From positions 1 to 64,000 of the forward strand of contig NZ_RKIE01000001.1 in the NCBI RefSeq assembly GCF_003751785.1: a stretch of DNA of 64,000 bases, in the 5' to 3' direction. The notes beneath the pieces were generated by a model that had not been told where the DNA came from, did no database searches, and was given only the letters and a program-made list of their open reading frames with translations. Source of the DNA: Frigoribacterium sp. PhB160. GTDB lineage: Bacteria; Actinomycetota; Actinomycetes; Actinomycetales; Microbacteriaceae. A program made the translations under genes and the position numbers. Below are positions 17,320 through 59,381 of this stretch, one piece after another. How positions within the stretch are numbered: the first letter of the stretch is position 1; the number at the start of each line of letters is the position of its first letter.

Positions 17320-17419
17320 GTCGCGCGGGGCGGGGCTGCCGTCACCGTCGCCGCGGGGTGTCGCCGCGGTCGGGTGCTGTCGCCCGGGCGGGTGCCGTCG
17401 CCGCGGGCGGGTGCTGTCT

Positions 17420-17438
17420 CCCCCCCCCCCCCCCCCCC
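17420..17438. repeat. Poly-C tract of 19 bases
   Basis: Nineteen consecutive C residues follow a run of imperfect GGTGCTGTCGCC-type repeats (about 17,370-17,419). The tract is intergenic, downstream of the VOC gene and upstream of the GNAT gene, both on the - strand, where it reads as poly-G. Confidence 0.9.
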
Positions 17439-27503: not shown

Positions 27504-27528
27504 TCGGGGCGGTCGCTGCGGTCGTCAC

Positions 27529-27594
27529 CGCGAACCGCGTTCCGAACCATGAACCGTGTTTCTTCGCGGTTCATGGTTCGGAACGCGGTTCGCG
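27529..27594. repeat. Perfect 28-bp inverted repeat with a 10-base loop
   Basis: The arm beginning CGCGAACCGCGTTCCGAACC (27529-27556) is exactly complementary to 27567-27594. GAACC occurs three times within the arm. It lies 26 bases after the small membrane protein gene and about 200 bases from the 3' end of the converging VOC gene. The rest of 27,504-27,801 shows no gene. Neither arm has a T tract. It could be a bidirectional terminator, but it is far longer than needed. Confidence 0.9.
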
Positions 27595-27801
27595 GCAAGC
27601 GAGCGTGCTGGCCGGAGGCGCGCAGAGCGCTGCGGGGGAGCCGCGCGGTGTGCCGCGCCCCGCAATGCGAGAGAACTCGGGCAAGGTGTGCGGGTCGGGC
27701 GCCAGTCGGCCCGTATTCTCGCCAATTCGGTAGGTGGCCGAAGGCGTACCGCGGAGGGGCCCGGGGGAGCCGGCGCGGGGCCGGGCGCGCGGGAGCGCTG
27801 G

Positions 27802-28158
27802 TCAGGGGCGGCGGGAGCCGAGCACGCAGAACTCGTTGCCCTCGGGGTCGGCGAGCACGACCCAGCTGACGTCGGCCTGGCCGACGTCGACGCGGCGGGC
27901 GCCGAGGGCGACGAGTCGCTCCACCTCGGCGTCGCGGTCGTCGGGACGGAAGTCGAGGTGCAGGCGGTTCTTCACCGTCTTGCCCTCGGGCACCTTGACG
28001 AAGAGCAGCCCCGGCAGCGTGTCGGCGTCGGGCCGGAGCTCGGGCTCGTCGTCGGTGCCGGCGGAGATGTCGACCCAGCCGAGGGCCTCGACCCACCAGG
28101 CCGCGAGGGCGTCGGGGTCGAGGGCGTCGACGACGACCTGCTCCCAGATCAGAGTCAC
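27802..28158 (-). CDS. Small VOC/glyoxalase-like protein
   Basis: A 118-residue single-module VOC-fold protein: TLIWEQVVVDALDPDALAAWWVEALGW, KNRLHLDFRPDDRDAEVERLVALGA and the terminal VVLADPEGNEFCVLG are typical of the glyoxalase-like group. Such proteins usually dimerise, and their substrates are rarely known. It starts with GTG, with AAGGG just upstream. It lies 31 bases after the DUF3073 gene on the same strand and may be cotranscribed with it. Confidence 0.85.
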   Translation of the reverse strand: MTLIWEQVVVDALDPDALAAWWVEALGWVDISAGTDDEPELRPDADTLPGLLFVKVPEGKTVKNRLHLDFRPDDRDAEVERLVALGARRVDVGQADVSWVVLADPEGNEFCVLGSRRP

Positions 28159-28189
28159 GAGGTCACCCTTCTCGCCGACGAGGGAGCGC

Positions 28190-28387
28190 CTAGGCGCTCT
28201 TGTCCTGGTCGTGTCCGGCGTCGTACTCGTCGTCGAAGTCGTCGGCCCACTTGTCGACGTACTCCTCGCCGGAGTCGCTCTTGGTGGCTAGTTCTTTCTC
28301 GAGCGCACCGTAGTTCGTGTCAGGGCTGAAGTACTTCAGCTCTCTGGCGACCTTGGTGTGCTTAGCCTTTTGACGGCCGCGCCCCAT
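28190..28387 (-). CDS. DUF3073 family protein
   Basis: A 65-residue highly charged protein. The start MGRGRQKAKHTKVARELKYFSPDTNYGAL is the hallmark of DUF3073, a short actinobacterial family commonly encoded near purM. The second half is acidic (DDFDDEYDAGHDQD). Function is unknown. The ATG has GAGGGGG about six bases upstream. Confidence 0.93.
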   Translation of the reverse strand: MGRGRQKAKHTKVARELKYFSPDTNYGALEKELATKSDSGEEYVDKWADDFDDEYDAGHDQDKSA

Positions 28388-28484
28388 GCGTGACCCCCTC
28401 GTGAACTCGGCCCGGAAAGTGTGTCGGACGAACCGGGAACTACCGACAGGTGTGGTTGCAAAACTGGACCCGATCTTATCATGG

Positions 28485-28509
28485 GCCCCTGCCCCCGGCG
28501 GCTCCCCCG
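28485..28509. repeat. Left copy of a 25-bp direct repeat bounding the surface-protein gene
   Basis: These 25 bases, beginning GCCCCTGCCCCCGGCGGCTC, are repeated exactly at 30885-30909, exactly 2,400 bases away. The flanks differ immediately outside the repeat on both sides. Confidence 0.9.
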
Positions 28510-28538
28510 CAGGCCGACTCGGACAGAGGCCCTCAGGG

Positions 28539-30743
28539 TCAGGCTCGGTGCCTCCGCCGGTTGAGCACGACCAGGACTAGTCCGAGCGCAAGAGCCAGTA
28601 TCCCGAACAAGCTCGCGGCCAAGGTGGAAGGGGAAGTGCCCGTCCAAGCAAGCGCGAGGCTAGGAGCTGCAAGCTCGGATGCTGCCTCGACCGTGGCCGG
28701 CGGCGGAACGCTGGCGTCGGCGGGAGAAAGGGCTCCAGGCCCCTGCCCCTCTTCGCTTCCCTCCGAAACTGGGGTGCGCTCGAGAATACGGAACGGCAAT
28801 GGTGCAGGGGAGCCCCCTTCCTGGAACGACACGTACCCTCCGAAGCCATGTTCATCAGTCAGCGTCATGCCGACGACGGTGAAGTCGCCTGGTCTGAGGC
28901 CTCGATCACCTGTCGCGACTACAACTGCGCCCGTCGTCACGTCTTCGGTCGTCTCGAGCTCGTCAGGATCGGAGTCGAAGAAGTAGACCCCTCCATCCGA
29001 AGTCGTCACAACGACTTGCGCTACGCCGATATGGCTCGCATCACGCACCGACCACGTGATCCTCACGTCGTCGCCATACGCGACCTCGCTTGGCGCCGCG
29101 ACCGCGAGAATCTCAGGAGGGTCGCGATCGATGGCCCCTCCGTCGATCAAGAACGTGACAGGTGCCGATTCCGTGCCAAGGGCTCTGATGGTCACGCCCC
29201 CCTCGGCATTGTGGGCAGCAAACCGCGTGACAGTCCAGATGCCCGGGGAGGCTGACAGGTCCACGCGCCAGGTAACGAGACCTCGTTGAACGTCACCCTC
29301 CCCAGCGGGCTCCCCATCGACTTGGTAGGAAAGGGTCCGCGACTCCCCTGAAGGACCTTCCAGGTCGACATCCAAGGAAGCGACTTGAGGTAGCCCAGTC
29401 ACGGCCCATTGGAAGTCGACGTCGTCACCCGCTGTGAATGGCCCAGGCGCAGATGTGATCTCCAGGACGGGAGCGCTGGGAGAAGGGCCCTCGCCCCCCG
29501 GCTCGGAGGGTTCCGGCTGGGGCTCAGGCTGGACGCCCACGACGCTGATGTTGGGGAAGGTGATGGCGCCAGGGGCGGTGAAGTCGACGTGGCCGTCGTT
29601 GGAGGCTTGGTCGTAGATGTTGACGCTGTGGGGTGTGTAGGTCCCGCCGGGCCAGATGCCGCCGTCGACTGTGGCCGTGGCGGTTCCGGTCCAGAGGTCG
29701 CCGGTTTTTGTGGCCGTGTCGTCGTTTTGGTCCCACCTGATCTGGAAGAGGGAGCCGGTGGGTGCTTCGACGTAGAAGATGGCGGCCTTGAGGGCGTTCT
29801 TCTCGCGGATGGTGAAGTCGAGGCGGATCTGGTCATCGGCACCGACGGTCGCCGGAGAAGCCAACTTCACGCCTTCCAAGATGGGCGCGGTCAGGTCAGC
29901 TGAGGCGTTGACGACGGTGATGTTGGGGAAGGTGATGGCGCCAGGGGCGGTGAAGTCGACGTGGCCGTCGTTGGAGGCTTGGTCGTAGATGTTGACGCTG
30001 TGGGGTGTGTAGGTCCCGCCGGGCCAGATGCCGCCGTCGACTGTGGCCGTGGCGGTTCCGGTCCAGAGGTCGCCGGTTTTTGTGGCCGTGTCGTCGTTTT
30101 GGTCCCACCTGATCTGGAAGAGGGAGCCGGTGGGTGCTTCGACGTAGAAGATGGCGGCCTTGAGGGCGTTCTTCTCGCGGATGGTGAAGTCGAGGCGGAT
30201 CTGGTCATCGGCACCGACGGTCGCCGGAGAAGCCAACTTCACGCCTTCCAAGATGGGCGCAGTCAGGTCAGCTGAGGCGTTGACGACGGTGATGTTGGGG
30301 AAGGTGATGGCGCCAGGGGCGGTGAAGTCGACGTGGCCGTCGTTGGAGGCTTGGTCGTAGATGTTGACGCTGTGGGGTGTGTAGGTCCCGCCGGGCCAGA
30401 TGCCGCCGTCGACTGTGGCCGTGGCGGTTCCGGTCCAGAGGTCGCCGGTTTTTGTGGCCGTGTCGTCGTTTTGGTCCCACCTGATCTGGAAGAGGGAGCC
30501 GGTGGGTGCTTCGACGTAGAAGATGGCGGCCTTGAGGGCGTTCTTCTCGCGGATGGTGAAGTCGAGGCGGATCTGGTCATCGGCACCGACGGTCGCCGGA
30601 GAAGCTAGCGCCAGCGACTCGAGAACAGGCGAAGTGAGATCTGGATCGACGGGAATCGGAGCTGCTTGCGCCGCAGATGCGCCGAAGAAGGACAGAGCGG
30701 CAACGATCGTCACACTCGCCTTGAGGAAGGTATTTCGTTTCAC
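28539..30743 (-). CDS. Repeat-containing, sortase-anchored surface protein
   Basis: A 734-residue secreted protein. An N-terminal signal peptide (KRNTFLKASVTIVAALSFFGASAAQA, cleavage near residue 27) is followed by three nearly identical 124-residue modules (about 35-158, 159-282, 283-406), a Pro/Glu linker, and two diverged beta-sandwich-like domains (about 430-640). The C-terminus is a sorting signal: LAWTG at 698-702, a hydrophobic helix and RRRHRA. LAxTG is the motif recognised by class E sortases of high-GC actinobacteria. No sortase gene is in the window. The GTG at 30743 is chosen for its GGAG five bases upstream and because the signal peptide starts there. Codon use is less GC-rich than neighbours. 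It is probably a wall-attached adhesin-like protein; its ligand is unknown. Confidence 0.85.
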   Translation of the reverse strand: MKRNTFLKASVTIVAALSFFGASAAQAAPIPVDPDLTSPVLESLALASPATVGADDQIRLDFTIREKNALKAAIFYVEAPTGSLFQIRWDQNDDTATKTGDLWTGTATATVDGGIWPGGTYTPHSVNIYDQASNDGHVDFTAPGAITFPNITVVNASADLTAPILEGVKLASPATVGADDQIRLDFTIREKNALKAAIFYVEAPTGSLFQIRWDQNDDTATKTGDLWTGTATATVDGGIWPGGTYTPHSVNIYDQASNDGHVDFTAPGAITFPNITVVNASADLTAPILEGVKLASPATVGADDQIRLDFTIREKNALKAAIFYVEAPTGSLFQIRWDQNDDTATKTGDLWTGTATATVDGGIWPGGTYTPHSVNIYDQASNDGHVDFTAPGAITFPNISVVGVQPEPQPEPSEPGGEGPSPSAPVLEITSAPGPFTAGDDVDFQWAVTGLPQVASLDVDLEGPSGESRTLSYQVDGEPAGEGDVQRGLVTWRVDLSASPGIWTVTRFAAHNAEGGVTIRALGTESAPVTFLIDGGAIDRDPPEILAVAAPSEVAYGDDVRITWSVRDASHIGVAQVVVTTSDGGVYFFDSDPDELETTEDVTTGAVVVATGDRGLRPGDFTVVGMTLTDEHGFGGYVSFQEGGSPAPLPFRILERTPVSEGSEEGQGPGALSPADASVPPPATVEAASELAAPSLALAWTGTSPSTLAASLFGILALALGLVLVVLNRRRHRA
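29537..30652. repeat. Three tandem 372-bp repeats inside the surface-protein gene
   Basis: The block beginning near 29537 recurs at 29909 and 30281 with a period of exactly 372 bases. Over the central 320 or so bases I see no difference between the three copies; the first two differ by single changes near their ends, and the third diverges only at the signal-peptide side. Each encodes a 124-residue module containing FTIREKNALKAAIFYVEAPT. Confidence 0.92.
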
Positions 30744-30884
30744 AGCTTCTCCATCACTCACCAACAGGCCCGCTGAAGGCTATAGGTGATTTTGGCTCAT
30801 GCGCGCACGCCGGGGTTGCGTGATGCCGAGGCGAGCGCGCGTTTGACATCGATCACTGTCAGCCTGAAGCAGGTGGGCCTCGCC

Positions 30885-30909
30885 GCCCCTGCCCCCGGCG
30901 GCTCCCCCG
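30885..30909. repeat. Right copy of the 25-bp direct repeat
   Basis: Exact copy of 28485-28509, ending 18 bases before the start of the flavoprotein gene. Recombination between the two would remove 2,400 bp and leave a 140-bp intergenic region between DUF3073 and the flavoprotein gene. Confidence 0.9.
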
Positions 30910-30927
30910 AGCGGGCATGATGAGCGG

Positions 30928-32094
30928 GTGCAGCAGACCGCCGACGCGCCGACGACACGCGTCGTCGTGGTGGGCGCCGGGCAGGCCGGGCTCTCGGTCG
31001 CGTACCACCTGCGGCGCCTCGGCCTGCGGCCCCACGTCGACTGGGTCGTGCTCGACCGCGGACCCGCCGCCGGAGGCGCGTGGCAGCACCGCTGGGCCTC
31101 CCTCCGCCTCGGGGCCGCCCACCGCGTCGCCGACCTGCCGGGCATGGCCGAGCTCGGCCTCAGCTTCGACACCGCCGACCGCTCGGCCCCGGCCCGCGAC
31201 GTCGTCCGCGACTACTACGCCCGCTACGAGGAGCACTTCGAGCTGCCCGTGCTGCGTCCCGCCGCGGTGCGCGACGTGATCGACCTCGGCGGGCGGCTGC
31301 GCGTGCGGTACGCGCACCGCGCCTCCGACGCGACGACGGACCCCACGACCGGCGGGTCGACCGAGGCGACCACCGACACGGCCGAGGCGACGATCGACAC
31401 GGAGGCGCTGGTCACCGCCACGGGCACCTGGGGCACCCCGTTCGTGCCCTGGTACCCGGGCCGCGACGGGTTCCGCGGGCGGCAGGTGCACACGTCGTCG
31501 TGGGTCGACGCCTCCGAGTTCGAGGGCCTCGACGTCGTCGTCGTGGGAGGCGGCACCAGCGCGATCGGGTTCGTCCTCGACCTCGAGGGGGTCGCGTCGT
31601 CGACCACGTGGGTCAGCCGTCGTCCGGTCGAGTGGCGCGACGGCACCGAGCAGCTGGGCGTCGGCGCGGCCGTCGCCGCGGTCGCCGAGCAGGACGCCGC
31701 CGCCCGCGCCGGCCTCGCCCTGCCGAGCATCGTGAGCGGGACGGGCGTGCCGCTGACCCGACGGTTCCGTGCGGGCATCGAGCGCGGCACCCTGGTCGAG
31801 CGACCCGTGTTCACCGCGATCGAGCCCGACGGCGTGCGCCTCGCCGACGGCGGCTTCCGCCACGCCGACGTGATCGTCTGGGCGACCGGGTTCCGTCCCG
31901 AGCTGCGGCACCTGGCCCCGCTCGGGCTCCGGTCTGGCGGCGGGGGAGTCGCGGTCGCCGACGGCGTCTCGACCCGCGACCCGCGCGTGTTCTTCGCCGG
32001 CTACGGCCCGCAGGCCTCGACGATCGGAGCCAACCGCGCCGGCCGGGCCATCGCCCGCCAGGTCGTCAGCCTGCTCGAGTCCCGCCGCGACTGA
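30928..32094 (+). CDS. Flavin-containing monooxygenase-like oxidoreductase
   Basis: A 388-residue FAD/NAD(P)H flavoprotein. The FAD motif VVVVGAGQAGLSVAYHL is near residues 12-28, a second Rossmann motif VVVVGGGTSAIGFVLDL lies about residue 205, and the end has WATGFRPELRHL and the FAD-closing VFFAGYGPQASTIGANRAGR. The pattern is that of the flavin monooxygenase/CzcO-like group, which oxidise heteroatoms or ketones. The substrate is unknown. A Thr/Ala/Asp-rich insert (DATTDPTTGGSTEATTDTAE) lies mid-protein. Start is the GTG at 30928; no strong ribosome binding site is seen. Confidence 0.85.
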   Translation: MQQTADAPTTRVVVVGAGQAGLSVAYHLRRLGLRPHVDWVVLDRGPAAGGAWQHRWASLRLGAAHRVADLPGMAELGLSFDTADRSAPARDVVRDYYARYEEHFELPVLRPAAVRDVIDLGGRLRVRYAHRASDATTDPTTGGSTEATTDTAEATIDTEALVTATGTWGTPFVPWYPGRDGFRGRQVHTSSWVDASEFEGLDVVVVGGGTSAIGFVLDLEGVASSTTWVSRRPVEWRDGTEQLGVGAAVAAVAEQDAAARAGLALPSIVSGTGVPLTRRFRAGIERGTLVERPVFTAIEPDGVRLADGGFRHADVIVWATGFRPELRHLAPLGLRSGGGGVAVADGVSTRDPRVFFAGYGPQASTIGANRAGRAIARQVVSLLESRRD

Positions 32095-41036: not shown

Positions 41037-41217
41037 CTCGCGGCGCGACGCGGATATTCCCTGGTCGGCGCGGGACTCCCGAACCAGTTCGTACCGGCGG
41101 TCACGGGTGCACGACAGGTGTCGGGGTGCCATCGTGGGGCGCGCGTCGGGCGGGCGCTCAGCCGGTGGTCGGGTGCGGCACAGCCGACGGCATGGTCCGC
41201 GCCGCTACCGTTGCCGG

Positions 41218-41334
41218 ATGCTGCTCAGCCCCGCACCCGTCGACGACCCGAGGAGGCGCGTCGCCGCCCCCGGGGATCGCCCGCGTCGGGCTCGTCTCGC
41301 CTCGTCCGCCGCGGGCCCGGGCGTCGCCGCGTGA
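41218..41334 (+). CDS. Possible 38-codon leader frame coupled to the VanZ-like gene
   Basis: An ATG six bases after TACCGT (41206-41211) opens a 38-codon frame whose TGA overlaps the GTG of the VanZ-like gene (GTGA). The peptide is Arg/Pro/Ala-rich with no recognisable domain. It may be translated only to couple ribosomes to the next gene, or be chance. Confidence 0.3.
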   Translation: MLLSPAPVDDPRRRVAAPGDRPRRARLASSAAGPGVAA

Positions 41335-41831
41335 CGGCGCGTCGCCGCCGGCCTCGTCGGGCCCGGGCGACGACGGGCAGCCGCCTCGTCGCCACCCTGC
41401 TGTTGCTGGTCTACGGCGTGCTCGTCGCCGCGGTCGCGTACTGGCCGACGCCGGTCGACCGGGGGATGCGGCCGCGCATCGACCGGGTGCTGGCCGCGCT
41501 GCACCGCCGGGGCCTGCCCGACTGGTTCGGCTACGACCAGCTCGAGTGGTGGGCGAACGTCGCGTTCTTCGTGCCGCTCGGCCTGCTCGTGGTGCTGCTG
41601 ATCGGCGGTCACCGCTGGTGGGTCGCGGTGCTCGTGGGCGGCGCGGCCAGCGTGGCGATCGAGGTCGGGCAGCACCTCTTCCTGCCGTCGCGCTACGCGA
41701 CCGTGGACGACGTCGTCGCGAACACGCTCGGGGCGGCGCTCGGGGCTCTCGCGGGGCTGGCGCTGCTGGCCGTGGTGCACGCGCGTCGGCGCGCGAAGGA
41801 CCGGCGGGCGGTGCGGCGGCTCGAGGTGTGA
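41331..41831 (+). CDS. VanZ-like membrane protein
   Basis: A 166-residue protein with four predicted helices. The VanZ-family core is clear: LEWWANVAFFVPLGLLVVLL, then a helix, then SVAIEVGQHLFLPSRYATVDDVVANTLGAALGALAG. VanZ-like proteins are widespread in Gram-positives; only a link to teicoplanin resistance is known for the founding member, and most have no assigned role. The GTG at 41331 is the first usable start before the first helix. The C-terminus is basic. Confidence 0.87.
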   Translation: MTARRRRPRRARATTGSRLVATLLLLVYGVLVAAVAYWPTPVDRGMRPRIDRVLAALHRRGLPDWFGYDQLEWWANVAFFVPLGLLVVLLIGGHRWWVAVLVGGAASVAIEVGQHLFLPSRYATVDDVVANTLGAALGALAGLALLAVVHARRRAKDRRAVRRLEV

Positions 41832-42080
41832 GGCGCTCGAGGCGGTGGGCCGCGCCGACCGTGACCCTCGTTGTGGGGCCGCGATGAGCGCTGCACCATA
41901 CCCTTCGTCGCATTCCTGCGCCCCACGTCAGGTCGCTCATGTGCGAGTATGAGAGAAGGCCTGAAGTGACGATGTTTCGTCGATAGCGCGAGCTGCCGAT
42001 CCGTCGCCCTTCTTCATGGAGCCGTCCCGGGGGTCACTGTCTGTTGAGCCCCCCTGCCGACCGACAAGAAATGGGGCCAC

Positions 42081-43517
42081 GTGGAACTGCGTGACTACAT
42101 CCGGATCCTCCGCAAGGGCTGGATCCTCATCGTCGCCGTCACCCTCGCCGGCATCGCCGCGGGTGCCCTGGCCTCGATCCTCGCGACGCCCAAGTACGTC
42201 TCCTCGACGCAGCTCTTCGTCAGCGTGCAGTCGTCGGACTCGAGCAGCGCTTCCGACCTGGTCCAGGGAGGCAACGCCGCCCAGCAGAAGGTCCGTTCCT
42301 ACGTGGATGTCGTCACCAGCACCAGCGTGCTGACCCCCGTCATCGAGCAACTCGGTCTGGACATGAGCTCGCAGGAGCTCGCGAACCAGGTGACAGCGTC
42401 GTCGCCCCTGAACACTGTCCTGATCAACATCACCGTCGAGGACCCGAGCCCGGAGCTCGCCGCGGGCATCGCGAATGCGGTCGGAGAGAGCTTCGCGACC
42501 GTCGTGTCCGACGATCTCGAATCGCCGGCTGGCGACGGACCGAGCCTTGTGAAGATCGCCACGATCGAGCCTGCTATCCCGGCCACGGCACCATCCTCGC
42601 CGAGAACGTCACTGAACCTCGCGATCGGATTCCTCGTCGGACTGGTCCTCGGAGCCGGCGTGGCGGTGCTCCGAGGCACGCTCGACACGCGCATCCACGG
42701 CACCCACGACATCGAGATGGTCACTGAAGCGCCCATCCTCGGGGGCATCAGCTTCGATCCTGGCGCACGCAAGCGGCCGCTAATCGTCAACGCGGACCCG
42801 CGGAGCCCCCGGGCGGAGTCCTTCCGCTCGCTGCGCACCAACCTCCAGTTCGTCAATCTGGAGTCGACGTCGAGGTGCCTCGTCATGACATCGTCGCTGC
42901 CGGGTGAGGGCAAGACGACCACGACATCGAACCTGGCGGTAGCCCTCGCCGAGACCGGTGCCAGTGTTGCTGTCATCGACGGAGACCTTCGACTTCCTCG
43001 CCTCGCAGACACCATGGGTCTCGAGGGCGCGGTGGGCCTCACGGATGTGCTCATCGGCCGAGCCGATCTCCAGGACGTCCTGCAGCCCTGGGGTCGTGGA
43101 AGCTTGTACGTCCTTCCCGCGGGGCGCATCCCACCGAACCCGAGCGAGCTGCTCGGATCCAAGGCGATGGTGTCGCTCATCGAATCCCTCACGTCCTCCT
43201 TCGACTACGTGCTCATCGATGCGCCACCGCTGCTGCCGGTCACCGATGCGGCCATCTTGTCGAAGCTCACGGGCGGTGCGATCGTCGTGGCTGCTGCAGG
43301 GCGGACGAAGCGGAACGAGCTCCAGTCGGCCATGCGGACCCTCGATCACATCGGCGGTCGTGTCCTCGGCGTCGTCGTGACGATGCTCCCGACGAAGGGA
43401 CCCGACGCATACGGCTACGGGAACTACGGCGCGTACTACGGCATGGATCAAGACAAGGTCGACGGTCCCAACGAGATGCCGAGCGACAACGCGAAGACGC
43501 AGGTGAGATCGCGGTGA
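42081..43517 (+). CDS. Polysaccharide co-polymerase/tyrosine autokinase (Wzz plus BY-kinase)
   Basis: A 478-residue membrane protein controlling polysaccharide length and export. A Wzz-type N-terminal domain with helix 1 (about 15-36) and helix 2 (about 178-200) precedes a cytoplasmic BY-kinase domain: Walker A SSLPGEGKTTT (271-281), A' VAVIDGDLRLP, Walker B VLIDAPPLL. The tail has a tyrosine cluster, YGYGNYGAYYG, the expected autophosphorylation site. Fusion of adaptor and kinase in one chain is common in actinobacteria. Starts with GTG after GGGG. It is the first gene of a three-gene unit with a phosphatase. Confidence 0.95.
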   Translation: MELRDYIRILRKGWILIVAVTLAGIAAGALASILATPKYVSSTQLFVSVQSSDSSSASDLVQGGNAAQQKVRSYVDVVTSTSVLTPVIEQLGLDMSSQELANQVTASSPLNTVLINITVEDPSPELAAGIANAVGESFATVVSDDLESPAGDGPSLVKIATIEPAIPATAPSSPRTSLNLAIGFLVGLVLGAGVAVLRGTLDTRIHGTHDIEMVTEAPILGGISFDPGARKRPLIVNADPRSPRAESFRSLRTNLQFVNLESTSRCLVMTSSLPGEGKTTTTSNLAVALAETGASVAVIDGDLRLPRLADTMGLEGAVGLTDVLIGRADLQDVLQPWGRGSLYVLPAGRIPPNPSELLGSKAMVSLIESLTSSFDYVLIDAPPLLPVTDAAILSKLTGGAIVVAAAGRTKRNELQSAMRTLDHIGGRVLGVVVTMLPTKGPDAYGYGNYGAYYGMDQDKVDGPNEMPSDNAKTQVRSR

Positions 43518-44176
43518 GCATGGCGTTCACCTTCGATCGGACGCCTCTTCCCCCCACCTTCCGCATCCTGACCGTCTGCACCGGCAACATCTGCAGGTCG
43601 CCGTTCGCCGAGCAGTACATCCGCCGAGGGTTGGACACCGCCGGTGTCGGGAACGTCGTGGTGGAGAGCGCTGGCACCATGGCCCGAGATGGCCAAGAGA
43701 TGCCCGACCAAGCGGCGGAGCTGTCTCGTCGATACGGCGCCGATCCATCGACTCATCAGGCTCGCTACCTCGTAGAGGGGTTCGTCTCGCGCGCCGACCT
43801 CGTCTTCGCCATGGGCCGTGACCATCGTCGAGCCATCGTCTCGATGCATCCGCGAGCGTCGAGAACGACTTTCACCCTCCGCGAATTCGCACGGCTCGCC
43901 GAGGGAATGGAAGAGGGCGATTTCCGCGATATCGCCGCGTTGCCCCTCGCGCAGACTGCAGAACGCTTCCGGGCTCTCGTAGCTGCGGTCGCGGCTCGGC
44001 GCGGACTCGTCGAGCCCGCTCGGCAGCCAGAGGACGACGACATCGTGGACCCCTATCGTCTCGACGACTCCGTCTTCGACGAATCAGGCCGTCAACTCGT
44101 ACCCGCGGCCGACATCGTCGTCGACATGCTTCGCCACGCCGCGACCACAACAGCAGGAACAGGAACCCACCCCTGA
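43514..44176 (+). CDS. Low-molecular-weight protein tyrosine phosphatase
   Basis: A 220-residue phosphatase, longer than the usual 150-160 residues. The P-loop is C22-TGNIC-R28 followed by SPFAE, and the general acid lies in DIVDPYRLDD near residue 177. A glycine-poor middle insertion accounts for the extra length. It is coupled to the autokinase gene by a GTGA overlap and should dephosphorylate the kinase's tyrosine tail, allowing cycles of polymerisation. A second start at 43520 (ATG) is possible. Confidence 0.94.
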   Translation: MSMAFTFDRTPLPPTFRILTVCTGNICRSPFAEQYIRRGLDTAGVGNVVVESAGTMARDGQEMPDQAAELSRRYGADPSTHQARYLVEGFVSRADLVFAMGRDHRRAIVSMHPRASRTTFTLREFARLAEGMEEGDFRDIAALPLAQTAERFRALVAAVAARRGLVEPARQPEDDDIVDPYRLDDSVFDESGRQLVPAADIVVDMLRHAATTTAGTGTHP

Positions 44177-45147
44177 TGGCCAAGGACAAACGCCGCCGCC
44201 GCGGCTCCGCATTCAAACGACCGCTTCTGATAGGCGGGCTCGCCCTCTTCCTCGCGGTCGATGTGGCCTTGGTCGGTTACGCCGTTCTGGGGCAGGGCGA
44301 CGCGCCCTCTTCCGATGCCTACACGCCAGTCCCTGTGGCCTCGGCCAGTGACGACCCGTCTGAATCCGACGCGGGCTCGACGACCCCGGAACCGACTGCG
44401 GTCGCTGTCGCGGCACCGACGACTTACCTATCGGCGGTCGATGAGAGCGTCGCTTACCGAGTGGCGGCCGGGACCTGCTCGGCGACGTCCCGGCCCGTCC
44501 TGGAGAAGACCGATGACGGCGGTTCGACCTGGATCGCGTCGACGTCCACCACGGACCTCTCGTCAGTCTTCCGGTTGCAAGCCGTCGACCAGTCGTATGC
44601 CTACATGGTCGGTCTCGGCGGGACGTCCTGCCTCCCTGGACTCACCGCTACGTACACGTCGGGTTCAGGCTTCCAGACCTACCCGGACCGAGTGGCGAGC
44701 GCATGGTTCCTGGACCCCGCGAATCCGGCCGTCGTCCATGCCCCGGGCGGCAACGCAGCTGCCCCGTGCGCCACGGGAGCGGTGCTGGCCCCGCTGGACG
44801 ACCTCAGGGCTGCCCTCCTCTGCGACGACGGTGTCATCTACCGGACTGCGAACTCAGGCGTCGTCTGGGACGCTGGCACGATCATCGAGGGTGCCTCTTC
44901 CCTCGCCGCGACCGGAAATGGTTACGTCGTCGCTGGCCGTCAGGCTGAAGACTGCGCAGGCGTCGCGGTCGTCGGCCTGAGTGCGTCGAGCGCGGGCGCC
45001 GCCCCGGTCGCCGTCGGTTGCGCGGCGGAGACCCTGGCGGCCGAGGACACGACCGGTCCGATCGCCATCGCAGCGACCGATGAGTCGGTTTGGATCCAGC
45101 TGGGCGGGACTGTGACGGTGTCGGCCGACGGAGGTCGGACGTTCTGA
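44176..45147 (+). CDS. Membrane-anchored extracytoplasmic propeller-like protein
   Basis: A 323-residue protein I do not recognise beyond its layout. A basic N-terminus (AKDKRRRRGSAFKR) leads into one helix (about 17-38), then a Ser/Pro/Asp-rich linker (about 42-80) and an extracytoplasmic domain with repeated motifs of the BNR/sialidase type, for example EKTDDGGSTWIAS and VSADGGRTF, plus several cysteine pairs. Such repeats form beta-propellers. Its first base is the last base of the phosphatase stop, so it belongs to the autokinase-phosphatase operon and may sense or bind the polysaccharide outside the membrane (inference). Confidence 0.7.
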   Translation: MAKDKRRRRGSAFKRPLLIGGLALFLAVDVALVGYAVLGQGDAPSSDAYTPVPVASASDDPSESDAGSTTPEPTAVAVAAPTTYLSAVDESVAYRVAAGTCSATSRPVLEKTDDGGSTWIASTSTTDLSSVFRLQAVDQSYAYMVGLGGTSCLPGLTATYTSGSGFQTYPDRVASAWFLDPANPAVVHAPGGNAAAPCATGAVLAPLDDLRAALLCDDGVIYRTANSGVVWDAGTIIEGASSLAATGNGYVVAGRQAEDCAGVAVVGLSASSAGAAPVAVGCAAETLAAEDTTGPIAIAATDESVWIQLGGTVTVSADGGRTF

Positions 45148-45178
45148 CGACGGCGGCCATCGTCGGCCTTGCCTGGGG

Positions 45179-46639
45179 TCAGAGACGGCCGCGCTCGAAT
45201 ACGGTACGCCGTGCGATGCGAACGACGTCGACGACTTGTCGGCGTGCCAGGAGCGCGTAGGTCAGCCCGTAGACCAGGACGAAAGCGATGATCGCGAGCC
45301 AGAGGGGAGCTGTGCCCATGATCGCCGCTGCGGAGCCCCAGGCCAGGACCAGGCCCAACATCGCGGTTCCCCAGCCAGCGAGGTAGGTCGTCAGTCGGTA
45401 CTGGATGATGCGGCGGAGAACGAGCATGCGTACCGGCCAGAACACGTACTGGCGGACGACGACGGCGGCGGCGACGGCCACCAGGCCGAACGGGCCGGCC
45501 ACCAGGAGCAAGGCCACCCCGAAGCCGGCCTGACCCACACTCAGCCAGAAGGCCGTGGAGGCCCGTCCGACTGCGATGAGGACTGACCTGTCGAAGATGA
45601 GCAGCGAGTTCAAGGCCCCGAGGAAGATCAGGATCTGAAGGATGGGTATGGCGGGCAGCCATTGCGAGCCGAAGACGACGGGGACGAAGAAGCTCGCGAA
45701 CGCGCCGATCGCGGCGAATACCGGAACCGTAGCCAGGCTCGTCGTCGAGGTGAGTCGATACAGCAGTGCGCGGAGTCGAGGTCGATCGTCTTGCAGTTTC
45801 GAGAACGCGGACAAGCCGACATTGGAGAAGACGGCAGTGAAGAGCTCGATGGACAAGGAGATGATCCTCATGGCGAAGAAGTACTGACCGAGCGGCTCGA
45901 CTCCGAGGAAGATCGCGACGATGAGGCGGTCTGCCTGCGAGTTGACGAACGTCACGAACTGGATTCCGAGGACGCCGAGGCTCGTGTTGAACAGGTCCCG
46001 CAAGCTCCCCAGGTCGAAGGCGATGCTCATGGACCGCCAAGTCGAGACCCAGACGAGGACGCCTCCGATGACGGCGAAGCCCAGAGATTGCACTACCAGG
46101 GCCCAGACGCCGCCTCCTACGAGAGCGACGACGACCGCTGCGGTGCCCGAGAGAAAGGTCGCAGAGGTCCGCCGGATGGCCAGGGCCTTGAATTGCATCT
46201 CACGTTCGAGCAGGGCCGCGGGGACGGACGAGAGGCCTTGGATGAAGAGTGAGACCGAGAGGGCTCTGAGGACGCCAGCGGTCTGGGGGCTTCCGAATAG
46301 ATCGGCGACGGCGGGCGCGGAAAGGAGACTCACTCCTCCGAGGGCGAGGCCGAAGACCGCGCTCACGGAGAAGGCGGTGCCGATGTCCCGCTTCGTCAGG
46401 TGGGCCTTCTGGATGAGCGCGTTGCCGAAACCAGCATCGACGAAGATGGTGACGAAAACCACGTAGGACGTCGCCAGCGCGACCGCACCGAAATCGGACG
46501 GCGTCAACAGCCGGCCCAGGATCACGAACACGACAAGGGTGAAGATTCGGGAGATCCACTTGTCGAGGAACGACCAGAAGATCGACTTCCCGAGACGCCT
46601 TCCGAAGTCCCCGGACGCCTGTACGGGGGCGCTCGGCAC
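45179..46639 (-). CDS. Polysaccharide flippase (Wzx/oligosaccharide exporter family)
   Basis: A 486-residue integral membrane protein with about 12-14 helices of the MATE/MviN-type polysaccharide flippase fold. The N-terminus GKSIFWSFLDKWISRIFTLVVFVILGRLLTPSDFGAVALA is diagnostic for lipid-linked oligosaccharide flippases. It should move undecaprenyl-linked repeat units across the membrane. It is the last gene of a - strand set: polymerase, glycosyltransferase, flippase. The GTG start is only three bases from the preceding stop, with GAGGA abutting the start codon. Confidence 0.92.
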   Translation of the reverse strand: MPSAPVQASGDFGRRLGKSIFWSFLDKWISRIFTLVVFVILGRLLTPSDFGAVALATSYVVFVTIFVDAGFGNALIQKAHLTKRDIGTAFSVSAVFGLALGGVSLLSAPAVADLFGSPQTAGVLRALSVSLFIQGLSSVPAALLEREMQFKALAIRRTSATFLSGTAAVVVALVGGGVWALVVQSLGFAVIGGVLVWVSTWRSMSIAFDLGSLRDLFNTSLGVLGIQFVTFVNSQADRLIVAIFLGVEPLGQYFFAMRIISLSIELFTAVFSNVGLSAFSKLQDDRPRLRALLYRLTSTTSLATVPVFAAIGAFASFFVPVVFGSQWLPAIPILQILIFLGALNSLLIFDRSVLIAVGRASTAFWLSVGQAGFGVALLLVAGPFGLVAVAAAVVVRQYVFWPVRMLVLRRIIQYRLTTYLAGWGTAMLGLVLAWGSAAAIMGTAPLWLAIIAFVLVYGLTYALLARRQVVDVVRIARRTVFERGRL

Positions 46640-46642
46640 TCC

Positions 46643-47365
46643 TCAGCCGATCGTGGGGTAGAGGCGGATGGCCCGCCGGGTCACGTCGTCGAGGGCTGCC
46701 ACGAACTCGCGACTACGCCGTTCTGGCTGTGGACCGGGCTTCCTGGCGAAGATCTTCTGTGCTTTGCCGAGGTACGTGTCCAATACGGATCGCTGGTACC
46801 CGGCCCTCAGGTCACCCGTGTAGTGACGGATGTGGTCGACGAGATCAGGGTCGAAGGTGTTGTTCCACTCGAGAGGCAGACGATCGGCTCGTGAGACGGT
46901 CCGATCCACGTAGATGAAGTTCCCGTTCTCGTACTTCAGGCCCGCACGGTCCTCGAGGGAAACGGACTCGGTCAGCGTGGCGAGGACCCGATCAATGTAG
47001 CCGCGAGAAGCCTCGCTGTTCCTGGCGAATATGACGCCGGAGTTCACTCGCCCAGAGCGTCCCTCCGCCATGTGGACATCGACGGTCCCTGAGGTGATGG
47101 ATTCGCGAAAATCAGGCGCCTGCTCGCTGACGACACAGTCAGCGTCGATGTATGCAACCCACTTTCGAGGGCTCGCTAGCGCGGAAGCCAGGAGAGGGAC
47201 CTTCAGCCAGGCAGCCAGTGCGGGGTCCTTCACGAAGGGCTTGGTCACGCTGACGTGTTCCGCGCCGAGCCGTCGCGCATAGGCCTCTTGGGAACGAATG
47301 GCCCGTCGGTACGACGTGCCGTAGCCGTTCAGGGCAACCGTGTAGAGCAATGTGTCGTTTGTCAT
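46643..47365 (-). CDS. Glycosyltransferase (GT-A fold, DxD motif)
   Basis: A 240-residue cytoplasmic nucleotide-sugar transferase. WVAYIDADCVV provides the DxD metal motif, and NSGVIFARNSEASRGYIDRVL matches the acceptor-side region of GT8/GT34-like enzymes. No membrane helix is seen. It lies between the polymerase and flippase genes and probably adds one sugar to the repeat unit. The donor sugar cannot be told. Confidence 0.8.
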   Translation of the reverse strand: MTNDTLLYTVALNGYGTSYRRAIRSQEAYARRLGAEHVSVTKPFVKDPALAAWLKVPLLASALASPRKWVAYIDADCVVSEQAPDFRESITSGTVDVHMAEGRSGRVNSGVIFARNSEASRGYIDRVLATLTESVSLEDRAGLKYENGNFIYVDRTVSRADRLPLEWNNTFDPDLVDHIRHYTGDLRAGYQRSVLDTYLGKAQKIFARKPGPQPERRSREFVAALDDVTRRAIRLYPTIG

Positions 47366-47395
47366 GTCGGTGTTGACCGTGAACTTTCGATTATT

Positions 47396-48751
47396 TCAGG
47401 AACGGCCGAGGGCGTTCTTGGGGGTCTTGAAGCCTCGTGTCGCACTGCGAGCCGCCCGGCCGTGGGCCGAAGGAGCTACTGCTTGATCGGACTCGAGCCC
47501 CTCTTCCAATTCGAGGGTCGCCTGAGGAGACGGACCGAAGACGTGAGCGAGGCTGATGCCGAGGAGGAAGAGGATCGCCGGGTTGGACTCGAGGCCGTTG
47601 AAGGAAGCGAGCATGATGCCGAACGTGATGACGAGTCCGAGGCCGGCCAGGTCACCTCGCCGAAGTGTCCGTACGAGTGCCACTGCCAGGATCATGGCGA
47701 ACAGCGCGACACCGGGGATTCCTGCGCTGATGAACAATTGGAAGTACCCGTTCTCGATGAGGTATCCCTCCGGGTTGAACTGCAGAGCAGCTGCCGTCGA
47801 CGTGCCGACACCGGAACCGACGTAACCGAAGTAGTCACCTGCAGCCAAGACGATTGCATTGATGCTCTGTCGAGCTGCTACCGAAGAGAGAGCTTCAGCC
47901 GAGAACAACCGTTCCTGCAATTGAGGGATCTGGAACGCGGCCAGGCCGGCGACGATCAGGGCGAAGGAGATACCCACCTTGCCACCGAGATTGAGGCGGG
48001 TCTGTCGGAACACGGCCAGCGTCGAGATAGCAACGAGGGCCAGAGCCAGGACTGCGATTCCGCCTCGCGAGATCGTCAGCACGGTCGCCAAGCTCGCTAG
48101 CCCCGCTACCACGAAGTAAGACCGCCGGCCGTTCACGATCGCCCAGCCATAGGCGAACGCGGCCGACATGCTGTAGAAGAGCGCTGCATAGAGGGGGTGA
48201 CCAAAGGATGCATTCGACCGGTAGACCGACCACGTGCGTACCAATGGACTGTCCAATAGCTGTCGCAATTGGTCGTAGATGGGATTGGACCCGAGCAGGA
48301 ACTCCAGGATGCCGTAAAGGGAGAGAACAGCGGCCGTCCAGATCCAGACCTTCCTGAGGACCAGGACGGAATCAGCTTCCCGGCTGCCAACGACCACCAG
48401 GACGACGCCCAGCACGAACGGTGCGATCCAGCCGAGGCTGGTCAGTTGGTTAAGGCTCCAGGTCAAGGTCGCGGCGAACCATGCCAGGGCGACGACGAGC
48501 AAGGCCACGAGCCTGATCTTCGCTCGCCTGTTCTCCGGGTCGGACGTTCTCTCCCCGAGAGTACGGAGGACCCAGACCGCGACGACCCAACCGAATGGGG
48601 GGATCCCTTGGATGATCGAGTTCTCGCTGTAGATGAATCGCGGCAAGACCACGAAGACGACTAGAGCTATCCCGAGCCCATAGCGTTTGGGCAGCACCAT
48701 GGCGAGGACCACCCCAAGGCCCCCGAGCGCGAGGGCGATGCCGCTACCCAA
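47396..48751 (-). CDS. O-antigen polymerase/ligase-like membrane protein
   Basis: A 451-residue protein with about 10-12 helices and a large extracytoplasmic loop (about 150-215 with SVYRSNASFGHPLYAALF), the topology of Wzy/WaaL-type enzymes. DYFGYVGSGVGTSTAA and GYLIENGYFQLFISAGIPGV match the conserved second-loop region. It probably polymerises repeat units outside the membrane. The start is a TTG supported by GAGGAG seven bases upstream. Confidence 0.85.
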   Translation of the reverse strand: MGSGIALALGGLGVVLAMVLPKRYGLGIALVVFVVLPRFIYSENSIIQGIPPFGWVVAVWVLRTLGERTSDPENRRAKIRLVALLVVALAWFAATLTWSLNQLTSLGWIAPFVLGVVLVVVGSREADSVLVLRKVWIWTAAVLSLYGILEFLLGSNPIYDQLRQLLDSPLVRTWSVYRSNASFGHPLYAALFYSMSAAFAYGWAIVNGRRSYFVVAGLASLATVLTISRGGIAVLALALVAISTLAVFRQTRLNLGGKVGISFALIVAGLAAFQIPQLQERLFSAEALSSVAARQSINAIVLAAGDYFGYVGSGVGTSTAAALQFNPEGYLIENGYFQLFISAGIPGVALFAMILAVALVRTLRRGDLAGLGLVITFGIMLASFNGLESNPAILFLLGISLAHVFGPSPQATLELEEGLESDQAVAPSAHGRAARSATRGFKTPKNALGRS

Positions 48752-49025
48752 GACGCCACTCCTCAGCGTCGAATCGAAGGTGACAGGGTGGGACGACTGA
48801 GGTCATGTGCATGCTCAGTTCCTTTCAGAGGACGCCCCCGCCCTCAACACCACGTGAGATGCCTTCGAGTGGTTCGCGGGAGGTCACACGAACCGATGGG
48901 GTGCCTGCTGATCATCAGGCTGTCTGCTGGTGAGAGCCTATCAACACTGAAGCTCGTTCCATGAGGGGCGGGTTGTGTGCTCGAATTGGTGTCGTTGCGT
49001 TCAACTCGGATGAAGTCGGGGAACT

Positions 49026-50129
49026 ATGAGAGTGCTGATCACCGTGAGGCGGTCGACTTCGACGTCGAATCCGTATGTGGATCTCTTCGAGGAGGGTCTA
49101 CCTCCGGCCGTACACACCCTGAGGTTCTCTTACCGGGCAGCCTTGCTGGGGCGTTATGACGTTGTCCACGTCCAGTGGCCGGAGTACATCTTCCGCGGCT
49201 CGACCGGACCGAAAGCAGCTGTCAAGGCGATCATCGGCCTGACGTTCCTCGCCCGCCTCCGTCTTCTCGGAGTGCCGGTCGTTGAGACGGTGCACAACCT
49301 TCGTTCTCACGAACCTGCTGGACGCCTGGAACGGATGCAAGTTCGTCTCCTCGAGAAGCTCACAGTCGTCAAGGTGTACCTAAACGAATCACCCGAGAAC
49401 GACATGGCGGCCGGTGTCGTCGTTCTCCATGGTGCGTATCCGGTCAGCGATGTCGGCCTTGAGCGCACATCGCGCGGGAGCTCCAAGATCCTGACATTCG
49501 GGCAGGTACGCCCGTACAAGGGTGTGGAGGACCTCATCACCGCCGTCGGCCCACTGGCGGACGTCGAACTCGTGATCGCCGGCTTGCCCATCGACCTCAG
49601 CTACGCCCGACGAGTCAGGGAGCTAGCGCACGCGGTCGGACAGCACGTGACTCTGAGGCTCGAGCACCTGGACGACAAGGCCCTGGAGGCGACCATCCGC
49701 GCTGCAGACCTCGTCGTCCTTCCGTACAAGCGCATGTACAACTCGGGAGCTGCTCTATTGGCACTCGGGAGTGCCAGACCGGTTCTTCTCCCCCGTAGCG
49801 GATCGACGACGGCACTAGCCGAAGAGGTGGGGCATGAATGGGTCACCCTGTTCGACCCCCCGATCGCAGCTTCGGACGTTCGAGTCGCGAGAGAGAGGGT
49901 CGAAGGCCTGGCGGCGGCGGCCCTACCTGACTTGTCGCGCCGAAATAGGCAGGTCGTCGGCCGTCTGCACGAGAAGATCTACGCGACGCTCCTGGCAGAG
50001 AAGCACAATGGCGGCACATCTCGGGCCGGGTGGCGAAGCGGGGTGCTACGACGCCTGGCCGGAGATGACGAGTTCCGTCGCCACTCGCGTTTCAACGCCG
50101 ACGGTGGGGGCGGGACTGCGTCTGACTGA
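49026..50129 (+). CDS. Glycosyltransferase (GT-B fold, GT4/GumK-like)
   Basis: A 367-residue GT-B enzyme. The N-terminal Rossmann domain starts MRVLITVRRSTSTSNPYVDL with VVHVQWPEYI; the C-terminal nucleotide-sugar domain has LTFGQVRPYKGVEDLI and the acceptor-side block VLPYKRMYNSGAALLALGSARPVLLP. It resembles mannosyl-type transferases acting on lipid-linked intermediates. It is transcribed alone; GGGGA precedes the ATG. Its 3' end overlaps the converging gene by 38 bases. Confidence 0.87.
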   Translation: MRVLITVRRSTSTSNPYVDLFEEGLPPAVHTLRFSYRAALLGRYDVVHVQWPEYIFRGSTGPKAAVKAIIGLTFLARLRLLGVPVVETVHNLRSHEPAGRLERMQVRLLEKLTVVKVYLNESPENDMAAGVVVLHGAYPVSDVGLERTSRGSSKILTFGQVRPYKGVEDLITAVGPLADVELVIAGLPIDLSYARRVRELAHAVGQHVTLRLEHLDDKALEATIRAADLVVLPYKRMYNSGAALLALGSARPVLLPRSGSTTALAEEVGHEWVTLFDPPIAASDVRVARERVEGLAAAALPDLSRRNRQVVGRLHEKIYATLLAEKHNGGTSRAGWRSGVLRRLAGDDEFRRHSRFNADGGGGTASD

Positions 50130-51264
50130 CTGCCTCATGAATTTCACGCACCGATGCCTCGAACATGAGTCGAAGTCGGTGATCGCCGAAAGCGGTGGTG
50201 ACGCCTTTGCCGTTCCCGGTCAGAGCCGACATCTTCTCGGGCGATCGAAGAACTTCGTCTAGGACGTCGCGGAGGGCTTCAGGCCGACCCGATGAGAAAG
50301 TCAACCCGTTGACGCCATCTGTGACGACCTCGAGTGGTCCTCCCTGGTCGGGAACGACGACCACCGCTCCGTGCGCGAGGCCTTGGACGACGACCTGCCC
50401 GAAGGGCTCGGGGAATCGGGTGCTCAAAACCATGACGTCGATGCGATCCAACACGCTGTCGACGTCATCGACGTGACCCCTGAACGACACGGGCACCGGC
50501 GATTCTCGCGCCAGGCGCTCGACTTCGGTGACGAAGACGGGATCCGAGAAGAACGTGCCTCCGTAGATCTCCAGCCGCACGGCGCGGCCGCGGATGATCG
50601 GCTCGAGTTGAGCGACGGCCTCGATGAGGATGTCGGTGCCCTTCCATCGGTCAGGACGGCTCAGAGAGGCGATGACGAGCTCTTCACCTGTCCCGCTAGG
50701 CGCGACCCGGCCGGCGGAAGATGTCTCGTCCACGCCCGAGATGGGATAGGCGACGCGGACAGGGCGGCGCGCGAGGCGGCGGGGGATGCAGGAGGCCGTC
50801 CATTCACTGTTGGCCAGGAAGCCATCGAACTGCCTGAACAGGAGCCTCATCGCAATGACGCGCTTGATGCCACGAAGGGTCTCCATCGAGACCCGCGAAT
50901 AATAGATGCGCGTGATGTTGCGGGGTAGGCGTGCGAACGCCATCGTGATGGTGCTGTACAGGCTGTTCGCGACGATCACGTCGGGCGACTCGCGGCGCAC
51001 TACGCCGGCGAGGCGAGCGCTGAACCGGGGCGCCCGCGAGAAGCTGAACTGTGACTCGTCGTCGATGACCGTCACGCGGTGGCCCAGAGCCCGTATCTGT
51101 CCTACGAGCGCCCCGCCGGTCAGCAGGATGACCGACACGTCGAAATCCGTCACGTCCCTGAGGTAACGCAAAAGCCCGAGTTGACCCCCGCCAGGGTCAG
51201 CGGAATGATCTATCAGGACCACCTTCAGGCGGGCGGGCACGGGAGCGCTGCCTTCGTCAGTCAT
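50092..51264 (-). CDS. Glycosyltransferase family 4 protein
   Basis: A 390-residue GT-B transferase. The N-terminal half begins LKVVLIDHSADPGGGQLGLLRYL, with a glycine-rich acceptor loop; the C-terminal half has VIASLSRPDRWKGTDILIEAV and the EX7E-type block FPEPFGQVVVQGLAHGAVVVVPDQGGPLEVV, which binds the nucleotide-sugar. The ATG lies in an ATGA overlap with the preceding glycosyltransferase gene, so the pair probably adds successive sugars. Sequence upstream of 51264 in this frame is a shadow. Confidence 0.9.
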   Translation of the reverse strand: MTDEGSAPVPARLKVVLIDHSADPGGGQLGLLRYLRDVTDFDVSVILLTGGALVGQIRALGHRVTVIDDESQFSFSRAPRFSARLAGVVRRESPDVIVANSLYSTITMAFARLPRNITRIYYSRVSMETLRGIKRVIAMRLLFRQFDGFLANSEWTASCIPRRLARRPVRVAYPISGVDETSSAGRVAPSGTGEELVIASLSRPDRWKGTDILIEAVAQLEPIIRGRAVRLEIYGGTFFSDPVFVTEVERLARESPVPVSFRGHVDDVDSVLDRIDVMVLSTRFPEPFGQVVVQGLAHGAVVVVPDQGGPLEVVTDGVNGLTFSSGRPEALRDVLDEVLRSPEKMSALTGNGKGVTTAFGDHRLRLMFEASVREIHEAVSQTQSRPHRRR

Positions 51265-52367: not shown

Positions 52368-52616
52368 CTGAGGGCCGTTCGGCCTCGTCGTGAATGCATG
52401 TGGGATCCCCTCGTGGTGGTTTCAGCCTCGGGGCTGCCGTCCTCATGGATGGTCACGGACTCGCTCGTCGACGTGACCCACCTGCGGCCAGCACCCCCAT
52501 TGGGCCGCACCTATGCTAATTGGTGTTTGTGCGCCTGTGGCATCGGGGTTGGACGGCGGAGATCGCCCGACTTGCCGTCAAAGGCTCCACAGTCTTGAGA
52601 TCGAGCGGGGAGACGA

Positions 52617-53441: not shown

Positions 53442-53443
53442 GT

Positions 53444-59365: not shown

Positions 59366-59381
59366 GCCGGAGCCGGATCGC

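What the first reader, a model, noticed from the sequence alone, without database searches (positions are those of the whole stretch)
28485..30909. A surface-protein gene sits between perfect 25-bp direct repeats 2,400 bp apart
Identical 25-mers flank the segment holding only the LAWTG surface protein. The sequence inside is less GC-rich than its neighbours. Removing the segment by recombination between the repeats would rejoin DUF3073 and the flavoprotein gene with an ordinary 140-bp divergent intergenic region. This looks like a removable or recently inserted cassette carrying a variable surface antigen, with no recombinase in it.
Basis: partly seen in the sequence, partly recalled or inferred. 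Interest (0 to 1): 0.75.

Follow-up and report, generated by a model that had tools for sequence, protein, structure and literature searches.

The report
Surface-protein gene inserted with duplicated target
In one bacterial species a foreign gene for a surface protein has dropped into the gap between two ordinary genes, and a 25-letter piece of that gap was copied so that it now sits on both sides of the newcomer; no gene for a DNA-moving enzyme came with it.

Summary
A 25-mer occurs exactly at 28485-28509 and 30885-30909 and nowhere else in the 3.34-Mb genome with up to 3 mismatches. It brackets one gene (28539-30743, minus strand) for a secreted protein with five Ig-like domains and a LAWTG-type C-terminus; the first three domains lie in nearly identical 372-bp tandem repeats.

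Relatives supply the empty site. The gene is absent from 15 of 15 other genomes held for the genus. In 8 of those 15 the DUF3073 and flavoprotein genes are neighbours. Seven of these 8 carry one ungapped 18-19/25 match to the 25-mer exactly where the window has two copies plus 2,375 bp. So the 25-mer is native sequence duplicated on insertion, and the event is recent. GC3 (0.76 against 0.85-0.98 in five neighbours) marks the gene as foreign.

There is no recombinase gene and no clear terminal inverted repeat. Best explanation: horizontal gain through illegitimate repair of a staggered break. A homologous gene in another genus also sits in a target duplication (143 bp; single copy in two congeners), so a recurrent pattern is possible but thinly sampled (2 of 4 homologues). 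Excision is plausible, not shown. The class (variable segments flanked by short direct repeats) is known.

The parts
28485..28509 (+). left copy of the 25-bp direct repeat (native sequence beside the start region of DUF3073)
   Evidence: aligned with the single-copy site of congeners
30885..30909 (+). right copy of the 25-bp direct repeat (upstream of the flavoprotein gene)
28510..30884 (.). inserted segment, 2,375 bp, GC 0.639; 28510-30885 has no nucleotide match in the syntenic regions of three congeners
28539..30743 (-). gene for a secreted LAWTG-type protein, 734 aa from a GTG start with GGAGAAGC before it (the mechanical ORF starts at TTG 30764, 741 aa); signal peptide, five Ig-like domains, Pro-rich stalk, LAWTG, hydrophobic stretch, basic tail
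   Evidence: features read by inspection. The LPXTG profile TIGR01167 did not list it among its 17 hits at E<=1
29539..30605 (-). tandem array of 372-bp units, 2.9 copies, 99% matches; exact runs of 316-344 bp shared between units; encodes most of the first three domains
29133..29474 (-). fourth, diverged domain of the same kind (25% identity to the repeat unit)
28776..29132 (-). fifth, diverged domain (26% identity to the repeat unit; sub-threshold Big_3_5 hit, E 0.0087)
28190..28387 (-). DUF3073 gene, left neighbour, found in 16 of 16 genomes of the genus (own included)
30928..32094 (+). flavoprotein (Pyr_redox_2/3) gene, right neighbour, next to DUF3073 in 8 of 15 congeners

Best explanation
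A foreign linear DNA fragment carrying one surface-protein gene was captured in this species' lineage at a break in the DUF3073-flavoprotein intergenic region. The break was repaired illegitimately (Ku-type end joining of a staggered break with fill-in, or polymerase template switching that backed up 25 bp), which copied 25 bp of native sequence to both sides. Shown: single native copy in relatives, two identical copies here, gene absent from all congeners held, foreign codon composition, no recombinase gene, no clear terminal inverted repeats, Ku gene present. Inferred: the repair route. The duplication left each neighbour with the 25 bp next to its start region, so the insert could be tolerated. 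The repeats should also allow rare exact loss of the gene, and the internal near-identical repeats should allow length change. Both are predictions.
For: Empty sites: in 8 of 15 congeners DUF3073 and the flavoprotein gene are neighbours; 7 of these 8 match the 25-mer ungapped at 18-19/25 and the left flank at 87-89/101, while the eighth (G002) matches 16/25 with 16 extra bases. Alignment to G009 breaks at 28509/30886. Gene absent from 15 of 15 congeners held. The two copies are identical although the site differs at 6-7 of 25 positions from those seven congeners, so the duplication is younger than the species splits. GC3 0.762 against 0.85-0.98 in five neighbours and 0.89-0.98 over the whole open frames of nine anchor-profile hits in the same genome. 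End comparison gives no convincing terminal inverted repeat (26 of 200 shuffles reach the score with 150-bp ends, 66 of 200 with the 25-mers included; 15 of 200 with 100-bp ends). Ku at E 4.7e-50. The 25-mer was not found as an exact string in genome contigs (where the own genome may be left out) or viral contigs, against a shared phage attachment core.
Against: No donor was found, so the ends of the captured fragment cannot be compared with their source. End joining usually leaves shorter duplications (general knowledge, no call). LigD was not searched. A homologous gene in G347 also lies in a long target duplication, which chance repair would not predict to recur with the same gene family.
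Confidence: 0.55

Rival explanations
1. A non-autonomous mobile element: the surface gene is a passenger moved in trans by a transposase or integrase elsewhere, which makes long direct repeats on insertion.
For: Long variable direct repeats (8-514 bp) are reported for two IS1634-family elements (PMC2266710, passages). The own genome has five PF00589 hits (tyrosine recombinases). A homologous gene in G347 sits in a 143-bp target duplication, and the two ends of that G347 insert have a weak inverted match that 6 of 200 shuffles reach.
Against: No transposase or integrase in the segment. No convincing terminal inverted repeats in the window insert. Of four comparisons between window and G347 insert ends, three were reached by 159-189 of 200 shuffles and one (right with right) by 17 of 200. 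Duplication length differs (25 and 143 bp). The target 25-mer is not conserved between species. Transposases and serine recombinases of the own genome were not searched.
Confidence: 0.15
2. Circle integration: the gene spreads within the species as an excised circle bearing one 25-mer, which re-enters by a single crossover at the 25-mer.
For: Gives exactly this structure. Direct-repeat-dependent excision with a circular form is reported for Salmonella wzy with 113-bp repeats (PMC12074656, passages).
Against: Does not explain the first arrival. 25 bp is marginal for RecA (same passages). No other strain or reads available.
Confidence: 0.12
3. The gene and its two repeats are ancestral and relatives lost the segment by recombination between the repeats.
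For: Deletion would give the same empty site.
Against: Needs loss in every sampled congener (15 of 15), with two copies staying identical here while the site diverged at 6-7 of 25 positions from seven of them. Foreign GC3.
Confidence: 0.05
4. A functional on/off switch: the 25-mers serve reversible loss of the surface protein, for instance under phage or host pressure.
For: The gene is a surface-type protein bounded by perfect repeats; analogous to the wzy locus (PMC12074656, passages).
Against: No evidence for a mixed population. The repeats are explained by the insertion itself. Deletion between 25-bp repeats 2.4 kb apart is expected to be rare (inference).
Confidence: 0.08

Closest known systems
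Variable segments flanked by direct repeats (Genome Biol 2010 11:R45, PMC2884548; passages read)
   Same: Small segment present or absent between related genomes, outside known mobile elements, bounded by a direct repeat under 30 bp. There 10-18% of variable segments have such repeats (5 bp or longer) and 66-94% of the repeats are under 30 bp.
   Different: That study compares strains within species and reads many such loci as deletions by short-homology slippage. Here the comparison is between species and points to insertion with duplication of native sequence.
Salmonella Typhimurium wzy locus (PMC12074656; passages read)
   Same: About 2.5-kb single-gene surface-related locus between perfect direct repeats, single copy in the deleted form, excision mechanism unknown.
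   Different: Repeats are 113 bp, both forms occur in cultures and a circle was detected. Here 25 bp, and the empty form is known only from other species.
Long-repeat-forming insertion sequences of the IS1634 family (PMC2266710; passages read)
   Same: Long direct repeats of variable length after insertion.
   Different: Those elements carry a transposase; this segment does not, and clear terminal inverted repeats were not found.
Periscope proteins (PMC8201768; passages read)
   Same: Cell-surface protein with long tandem repeats of globular domains that are nearly identical at DNA level.
   Different: Only three near-identical repeats, the domain matches no family well, and no length variants are known.
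Transposed Arabidopsis genes with flanking repeats (PMC2869330; passages read)
   Same: Ordinary genes at new sites between direct repeats that match the single-copy target site of a sister species.
   Different: Eukaryote; parental sites are known for some genes there, none here.

Membership tests
Variable segment flanked by direct repeats | Present in one genome, absent from the same locus in relatives | tested here: met
Variable segment flanked by direct repeats | Direct repeat at the base of the segment, usually under 30 bp | tested here: met
   25 bp exact
Variable segment flanked by direct repeats | Not a known mobile or repeated element | tested here: met
   only one gene fits in the segment; its two whole-protein Pfam hits over cut-off, DUF7918 and BatD, are not mobile-element families; no relative in plasmids or phages
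wzy-like reversible excision | Repeat-dependent loss seen within one culture, circle detected | not testable with these tools
   no reads; one genome per species
wzy-like reversible excision | Single gene between perfect direct repeats | tested here: met
IS1634-type or other transposon | Transposase gene in the element | tested here: not met
   no ORF of 60 aa or more other than the surface gene and ORFs overlapping it or the flanks; Pfam of the surface protein; the overlapping ORFs were not run through Pfam
IS1634-type or other transposon | Terminal inverted repeats | tested here: inconclusive
   best match 12 bp with one mismatch, reached by 26 of 200 shuffles with 150-bp ends; 15 of 200 with 100-bp ends
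Integrase-borne element | Attachment core shared with other elements or conserved in hosts | tested here: not met
   0 exact matches in genome contigs and viral contigs; site 16-19/25 in eight congeners
Sortase-anchored surface protein | Signal peptide, LPXTG-like motif, hydrophobic segment, basic tail | tested here: inconclusive
   LAWTG, hydrophobic stretch and RRRHRA tail seen in the sequence, but TIGR01167 did not list the gene at E<=1
Sortase-anchored surface protein | Sortase in the genome | tested here: met
   three PF04203 hits over cut-off
Periscope protein | Long tandem repeats nearly identical at DNA level | tested here: met
Periscope protein | Repeat number differs between strains | not testable with these tools
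   one genome of the species held

The most novel reading that the evidence does not exclude
Genes of this Ig-like surface-protein family enter actinobacterial chromosomes repeatedly as naked cassettes that duplicate 25 to more than 140 bp of target, by one shared recombinase-free (or trans-acting) route that is not yet described. The window (25 bp) and G347 (143 bp) would be two cases of it.
Probability: 0.1. Interest if true: 0.7.

Novelty: new member of a known kind. Interest (0 to 1): 0.4.

Why it matters
It is a clean example of single-gene gain: native target sequence, duplicated target and foreign payload can all be read, with ungapped empty sites in seven other species. Gene gain without a recombinase is usually inferred only from absence of other signs, so a case with intact ends can help test how bacteria with Ku capture foreign DNA. 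If the G347 parallel holds in more genomes, surface-protein genes would have a recognisable entry signature. The repeats also give a cheap PCR test for loss of a surface protein.

Tried and rejected
Dispersed repeat: rejected, only two sites in the genome at up to 3 mismatches. Integrase attachment site: the 25-mer was not found as an exact string in genome contigs or viral contigs; the window's one tRNA is at 2677-2749. RNA element: no Rfam match at gathering score in 28000-31200. DNA structure of the repeats: z-scores -1.12 to 0.42 for four folds, nothing unusual. Donor: pattern scans matched 15 stretches in genome contigs and 4 in viral contigs, none a relative by tblastn; no match by tblastn in plasmids or phages. 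In samples of the family (398 genomes) 3 had a match: own, G347 (two genes, 26 and 28%) and G060 (C-terminal part, one stop inside). In the order (396 genomes) 3 had a match: own, G483 (29%) and G427 (C-terminal only). A profile search of the order (19 of 396 genomes) added mostly matches to the Pro/Thr-rich stalk and anchor, not to the domains; new domain-type matches were two in G574 at contig ends (fetched as L174, L175 but not analysed), and a G557 match was not followed.

Other homologues as further cases: G347's second gene (L069) has only a 16-bp palindrome shared by two hairpin-like sequences on either side, not a target duplication. G483's gene lies between two near-identical 1,912-bp stretches of neighbouring genes, which I read as gene duplication, not a target duplication. 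tadA is also broken in G372 and G284, by segments with a serine-recombinase-like ORF (my reading, not run through Pfam); I take this as unrelated.

Structure search by Foldseek itself could not be started. LigD, transposases and serine recombinases of the own genome were not searched. Papers: 9 searches run (two found no paper); one search was rejected for a short term. One NHEJ paper (PMC7719229, passages) holds neither 'insertion' nor 'foreign DNA'.

Full report
CHECK OF THE OBSERVATION. The 25-mer is present exactly at 28485-28509 and 30885-30909 on the same strand, 2,400 bp apart. At up to 3 mismatches these are the only two sites in the 64-kb window and in the 3,338,185-base genome. As an exact string it was not found in genome contigs (where the own genome may be left out) or viral contigs. 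Thirty fifth-order Markov copies of the window had longest exact direct repeats of 16-21 bp. Among exact direct repeats of 17 bp or more and at most 30 kb apart, the longest that is not part of a tandem array is this one; the next are 18 bp.

EMPTY SITES. DUF3073 was found in 16 of 16 genomes held for the genus, own included; the surface protein in 1 of 16, the own one. The flavoprotein gene lies next to DUF3073 in 8 of 15 congeners: G002, G004, G005, G006, G008, G009, G010, G013. In G001 DUF3073 is followed directly by the gene that lies beyond the flavoprotein in the window, and in the remaining six the flavoprotein is not at this place (12-kb stretches). When the two window flanks are joined with one 25-mer, seven of the eight align to it without gaps (18-19 of 25) and match 87-89 of the left 101 columns; G002 matches 16 of 25 and has 16 extra bases inside. 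BLAST blocks to G009 end at 28509 and restart at 30886; 28510-30885 has no match in the fetched regions of G003, G009 and G015, of which only G009 has the flavoprotein side. The 25-mer is therefore native sequence. It adjoins TGATAAGATC upstream of DUF3073, of which TG(A/C)TAAGATC is seen in the congener junctions read; I read this as an extended -10 promoter element (inspection).

DIRECTION AND AGE. A purM tree puts the own species on a separate branch with weak deep support. Gain in the own lineage needs one event; loss would need every other sampled lineage to lose the gene. The site differs by 6-7 of 25 positions from seven congeners, yet the two copies here are identical, so the duplication is younger than those splits. 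GC3 of the gene is 0.762 (0.855 in the repeats, 0.677 in the rest), against 0.85-0.98 in five neighbouring genes and 0.89-0.98 over the whole open frames of nine over-cut-off anchor-profile hits of the same genome, one of which showed no anchor motif.

CONTROLS. A second lineage-specific block in the window, about 18.3 kb at 41100-59437, codes for polysaccharide synthesis; one search shows no exact direct repeat of 17 bp or more between its two ends. Eleven of 17 anchor-profile places of the own genome were checked for enclosing repeats. Among the at most five longest repeats printed for each, one enclosing repeat exceeded 18 bp: 24 bp in L102, 7,443 bp apart, which I read as an ABC-transporter LLLLDEPT coding motif (inspection). 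In loci rich in tandem repeats the list of five could hide shorter enclosing ones.

A SECOND CASE. Four homologous genes with domain-level similarity were examined: the window's, two in G347 (same family, other genus) and one in G483. The first G347 gene (L068:5679-7367) lies between direct repeats of 143 aligned columns with 136 identities at 5037-5178 and 8603-8745, made of the end of a tadA-like and the start of a tadB-like gene (names by my reading). The genus of G347 was searched in 10 genomes and 4 of the other 9 were fetched. G200 and G087 have a single copy (109 and 110 of 143 matches; second-best scores 32 and 38 against 150 and 148); in G372 and G284 the tadA end and tadB adjoin too, single copy not tested. 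The G347 insert is 3,424 bp, GC 0.650. Of four end comparisons with the window insert three are at chance and one (right with right) is reached by 17 of 200 shuffles; the G347 insert's own two ends show a weak inverted match reached by 6 of 200. The second G347 gene has no such duplication, and the G483 gene lies between duplicated neighbouring genes. So 2 of 4 show a long target duplication. That is suggestive, no more; these genes were not chosen at random and no genome-wide rate was measured.

MECHANISM. Ku is present. Five tyrosine recombinase hits exist in the genome, none within this window. No convincing terminal inverted repeats in the window insert. I therefore favour capture of foreign DNA at a staggered break or by template switching. 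The step from structure to enzyme is inference. Excision between the repeats is predicted to be rare: 25 bp is at the lower limit quoted for RecA (23-27 bp, PMC12074656, passages).

COMPARISON. PMC2884548 (passages) reports that 10-18% of small variable segments are flanked by direct repeats, most under 30 bp, and attributes much of this diversity to illegitimate recombination; the present case fits that class. PMC12074656 (passages) shows repeat-dependent loss of a single surface-related gene. PMC2266710 (passages) reports 8-514-bp repeats for two transposase-bearing elements. PMC8201768 (passages) describes length-variable surface proteins with near-identical repeats. PMC2869330 (passages) describes moved genes between duplicated target sequence in a plant. 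I saw no report of this locus, but the nine searches were by mechanism or protein type, and one by a guessed genus name (no paper), so this is no proof that none exists.

LIMITS. That it is one of the Microbacteriaceae is recalled from gene content and GC, not from a call. One genome per species was available, no reads, no donor.

Noticed in passing
window 41100-59437: About 18 kb at GC 0.65 without nucleotide match in the fetched regions of three congeners, with Wzz-like, flippase, Wzy-like (sub-threshold), glycosyltransferase, pyruvyltransferase and sugar-transferase genes: a lineage-specific polysaccharide cluster.
   Followed up: partly
window 17420-17438: Run of 19 C beside 19-bp tandem repeats (17359-17418); could be a slippage-prone tract. 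Gene context not worked out; four long ORFs overlap the stretch.
   Followed up: no
window 27528-27595: Perfect inverted repeat with 29-bp arms and a 10-bp loop just left of the finding.
   Followed up: no
window 2839-2940: Array of 27-33-bp GC-rich tandem repeats about 90 bp after a tRNA-Gln gene.
   Followed up: no
L137, L138 (G372, G284): tadA-like gene broken near codon 331-334 in both genomes by segments of about 6 and 10 kb with a serine-recombinase-like ORF at one end (my reading of the ORF), as if tadA were an integration site.
   Followed up: partly
L068 5037-5178 and 8603-8745 (G347): 143-column imperfect direct repeat around a homologous surface gene between tadA-like and tadB-like genes; the tadB-like start in the left copy is frameshifted.
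   Followed up: yes
L173 6175-8086 and 15604-17515 (G483): Two almost identical 1,912-bp stretches of neighbouring genes bracket a 2,050-aa homologue with its own internal repeats.
   Followed up: partly
L069 5762 and 7924 (G347): Same 16-bp palindrome forms the core of two different hairpin-like sequences on either side of the second homologue.
   Followed up: no
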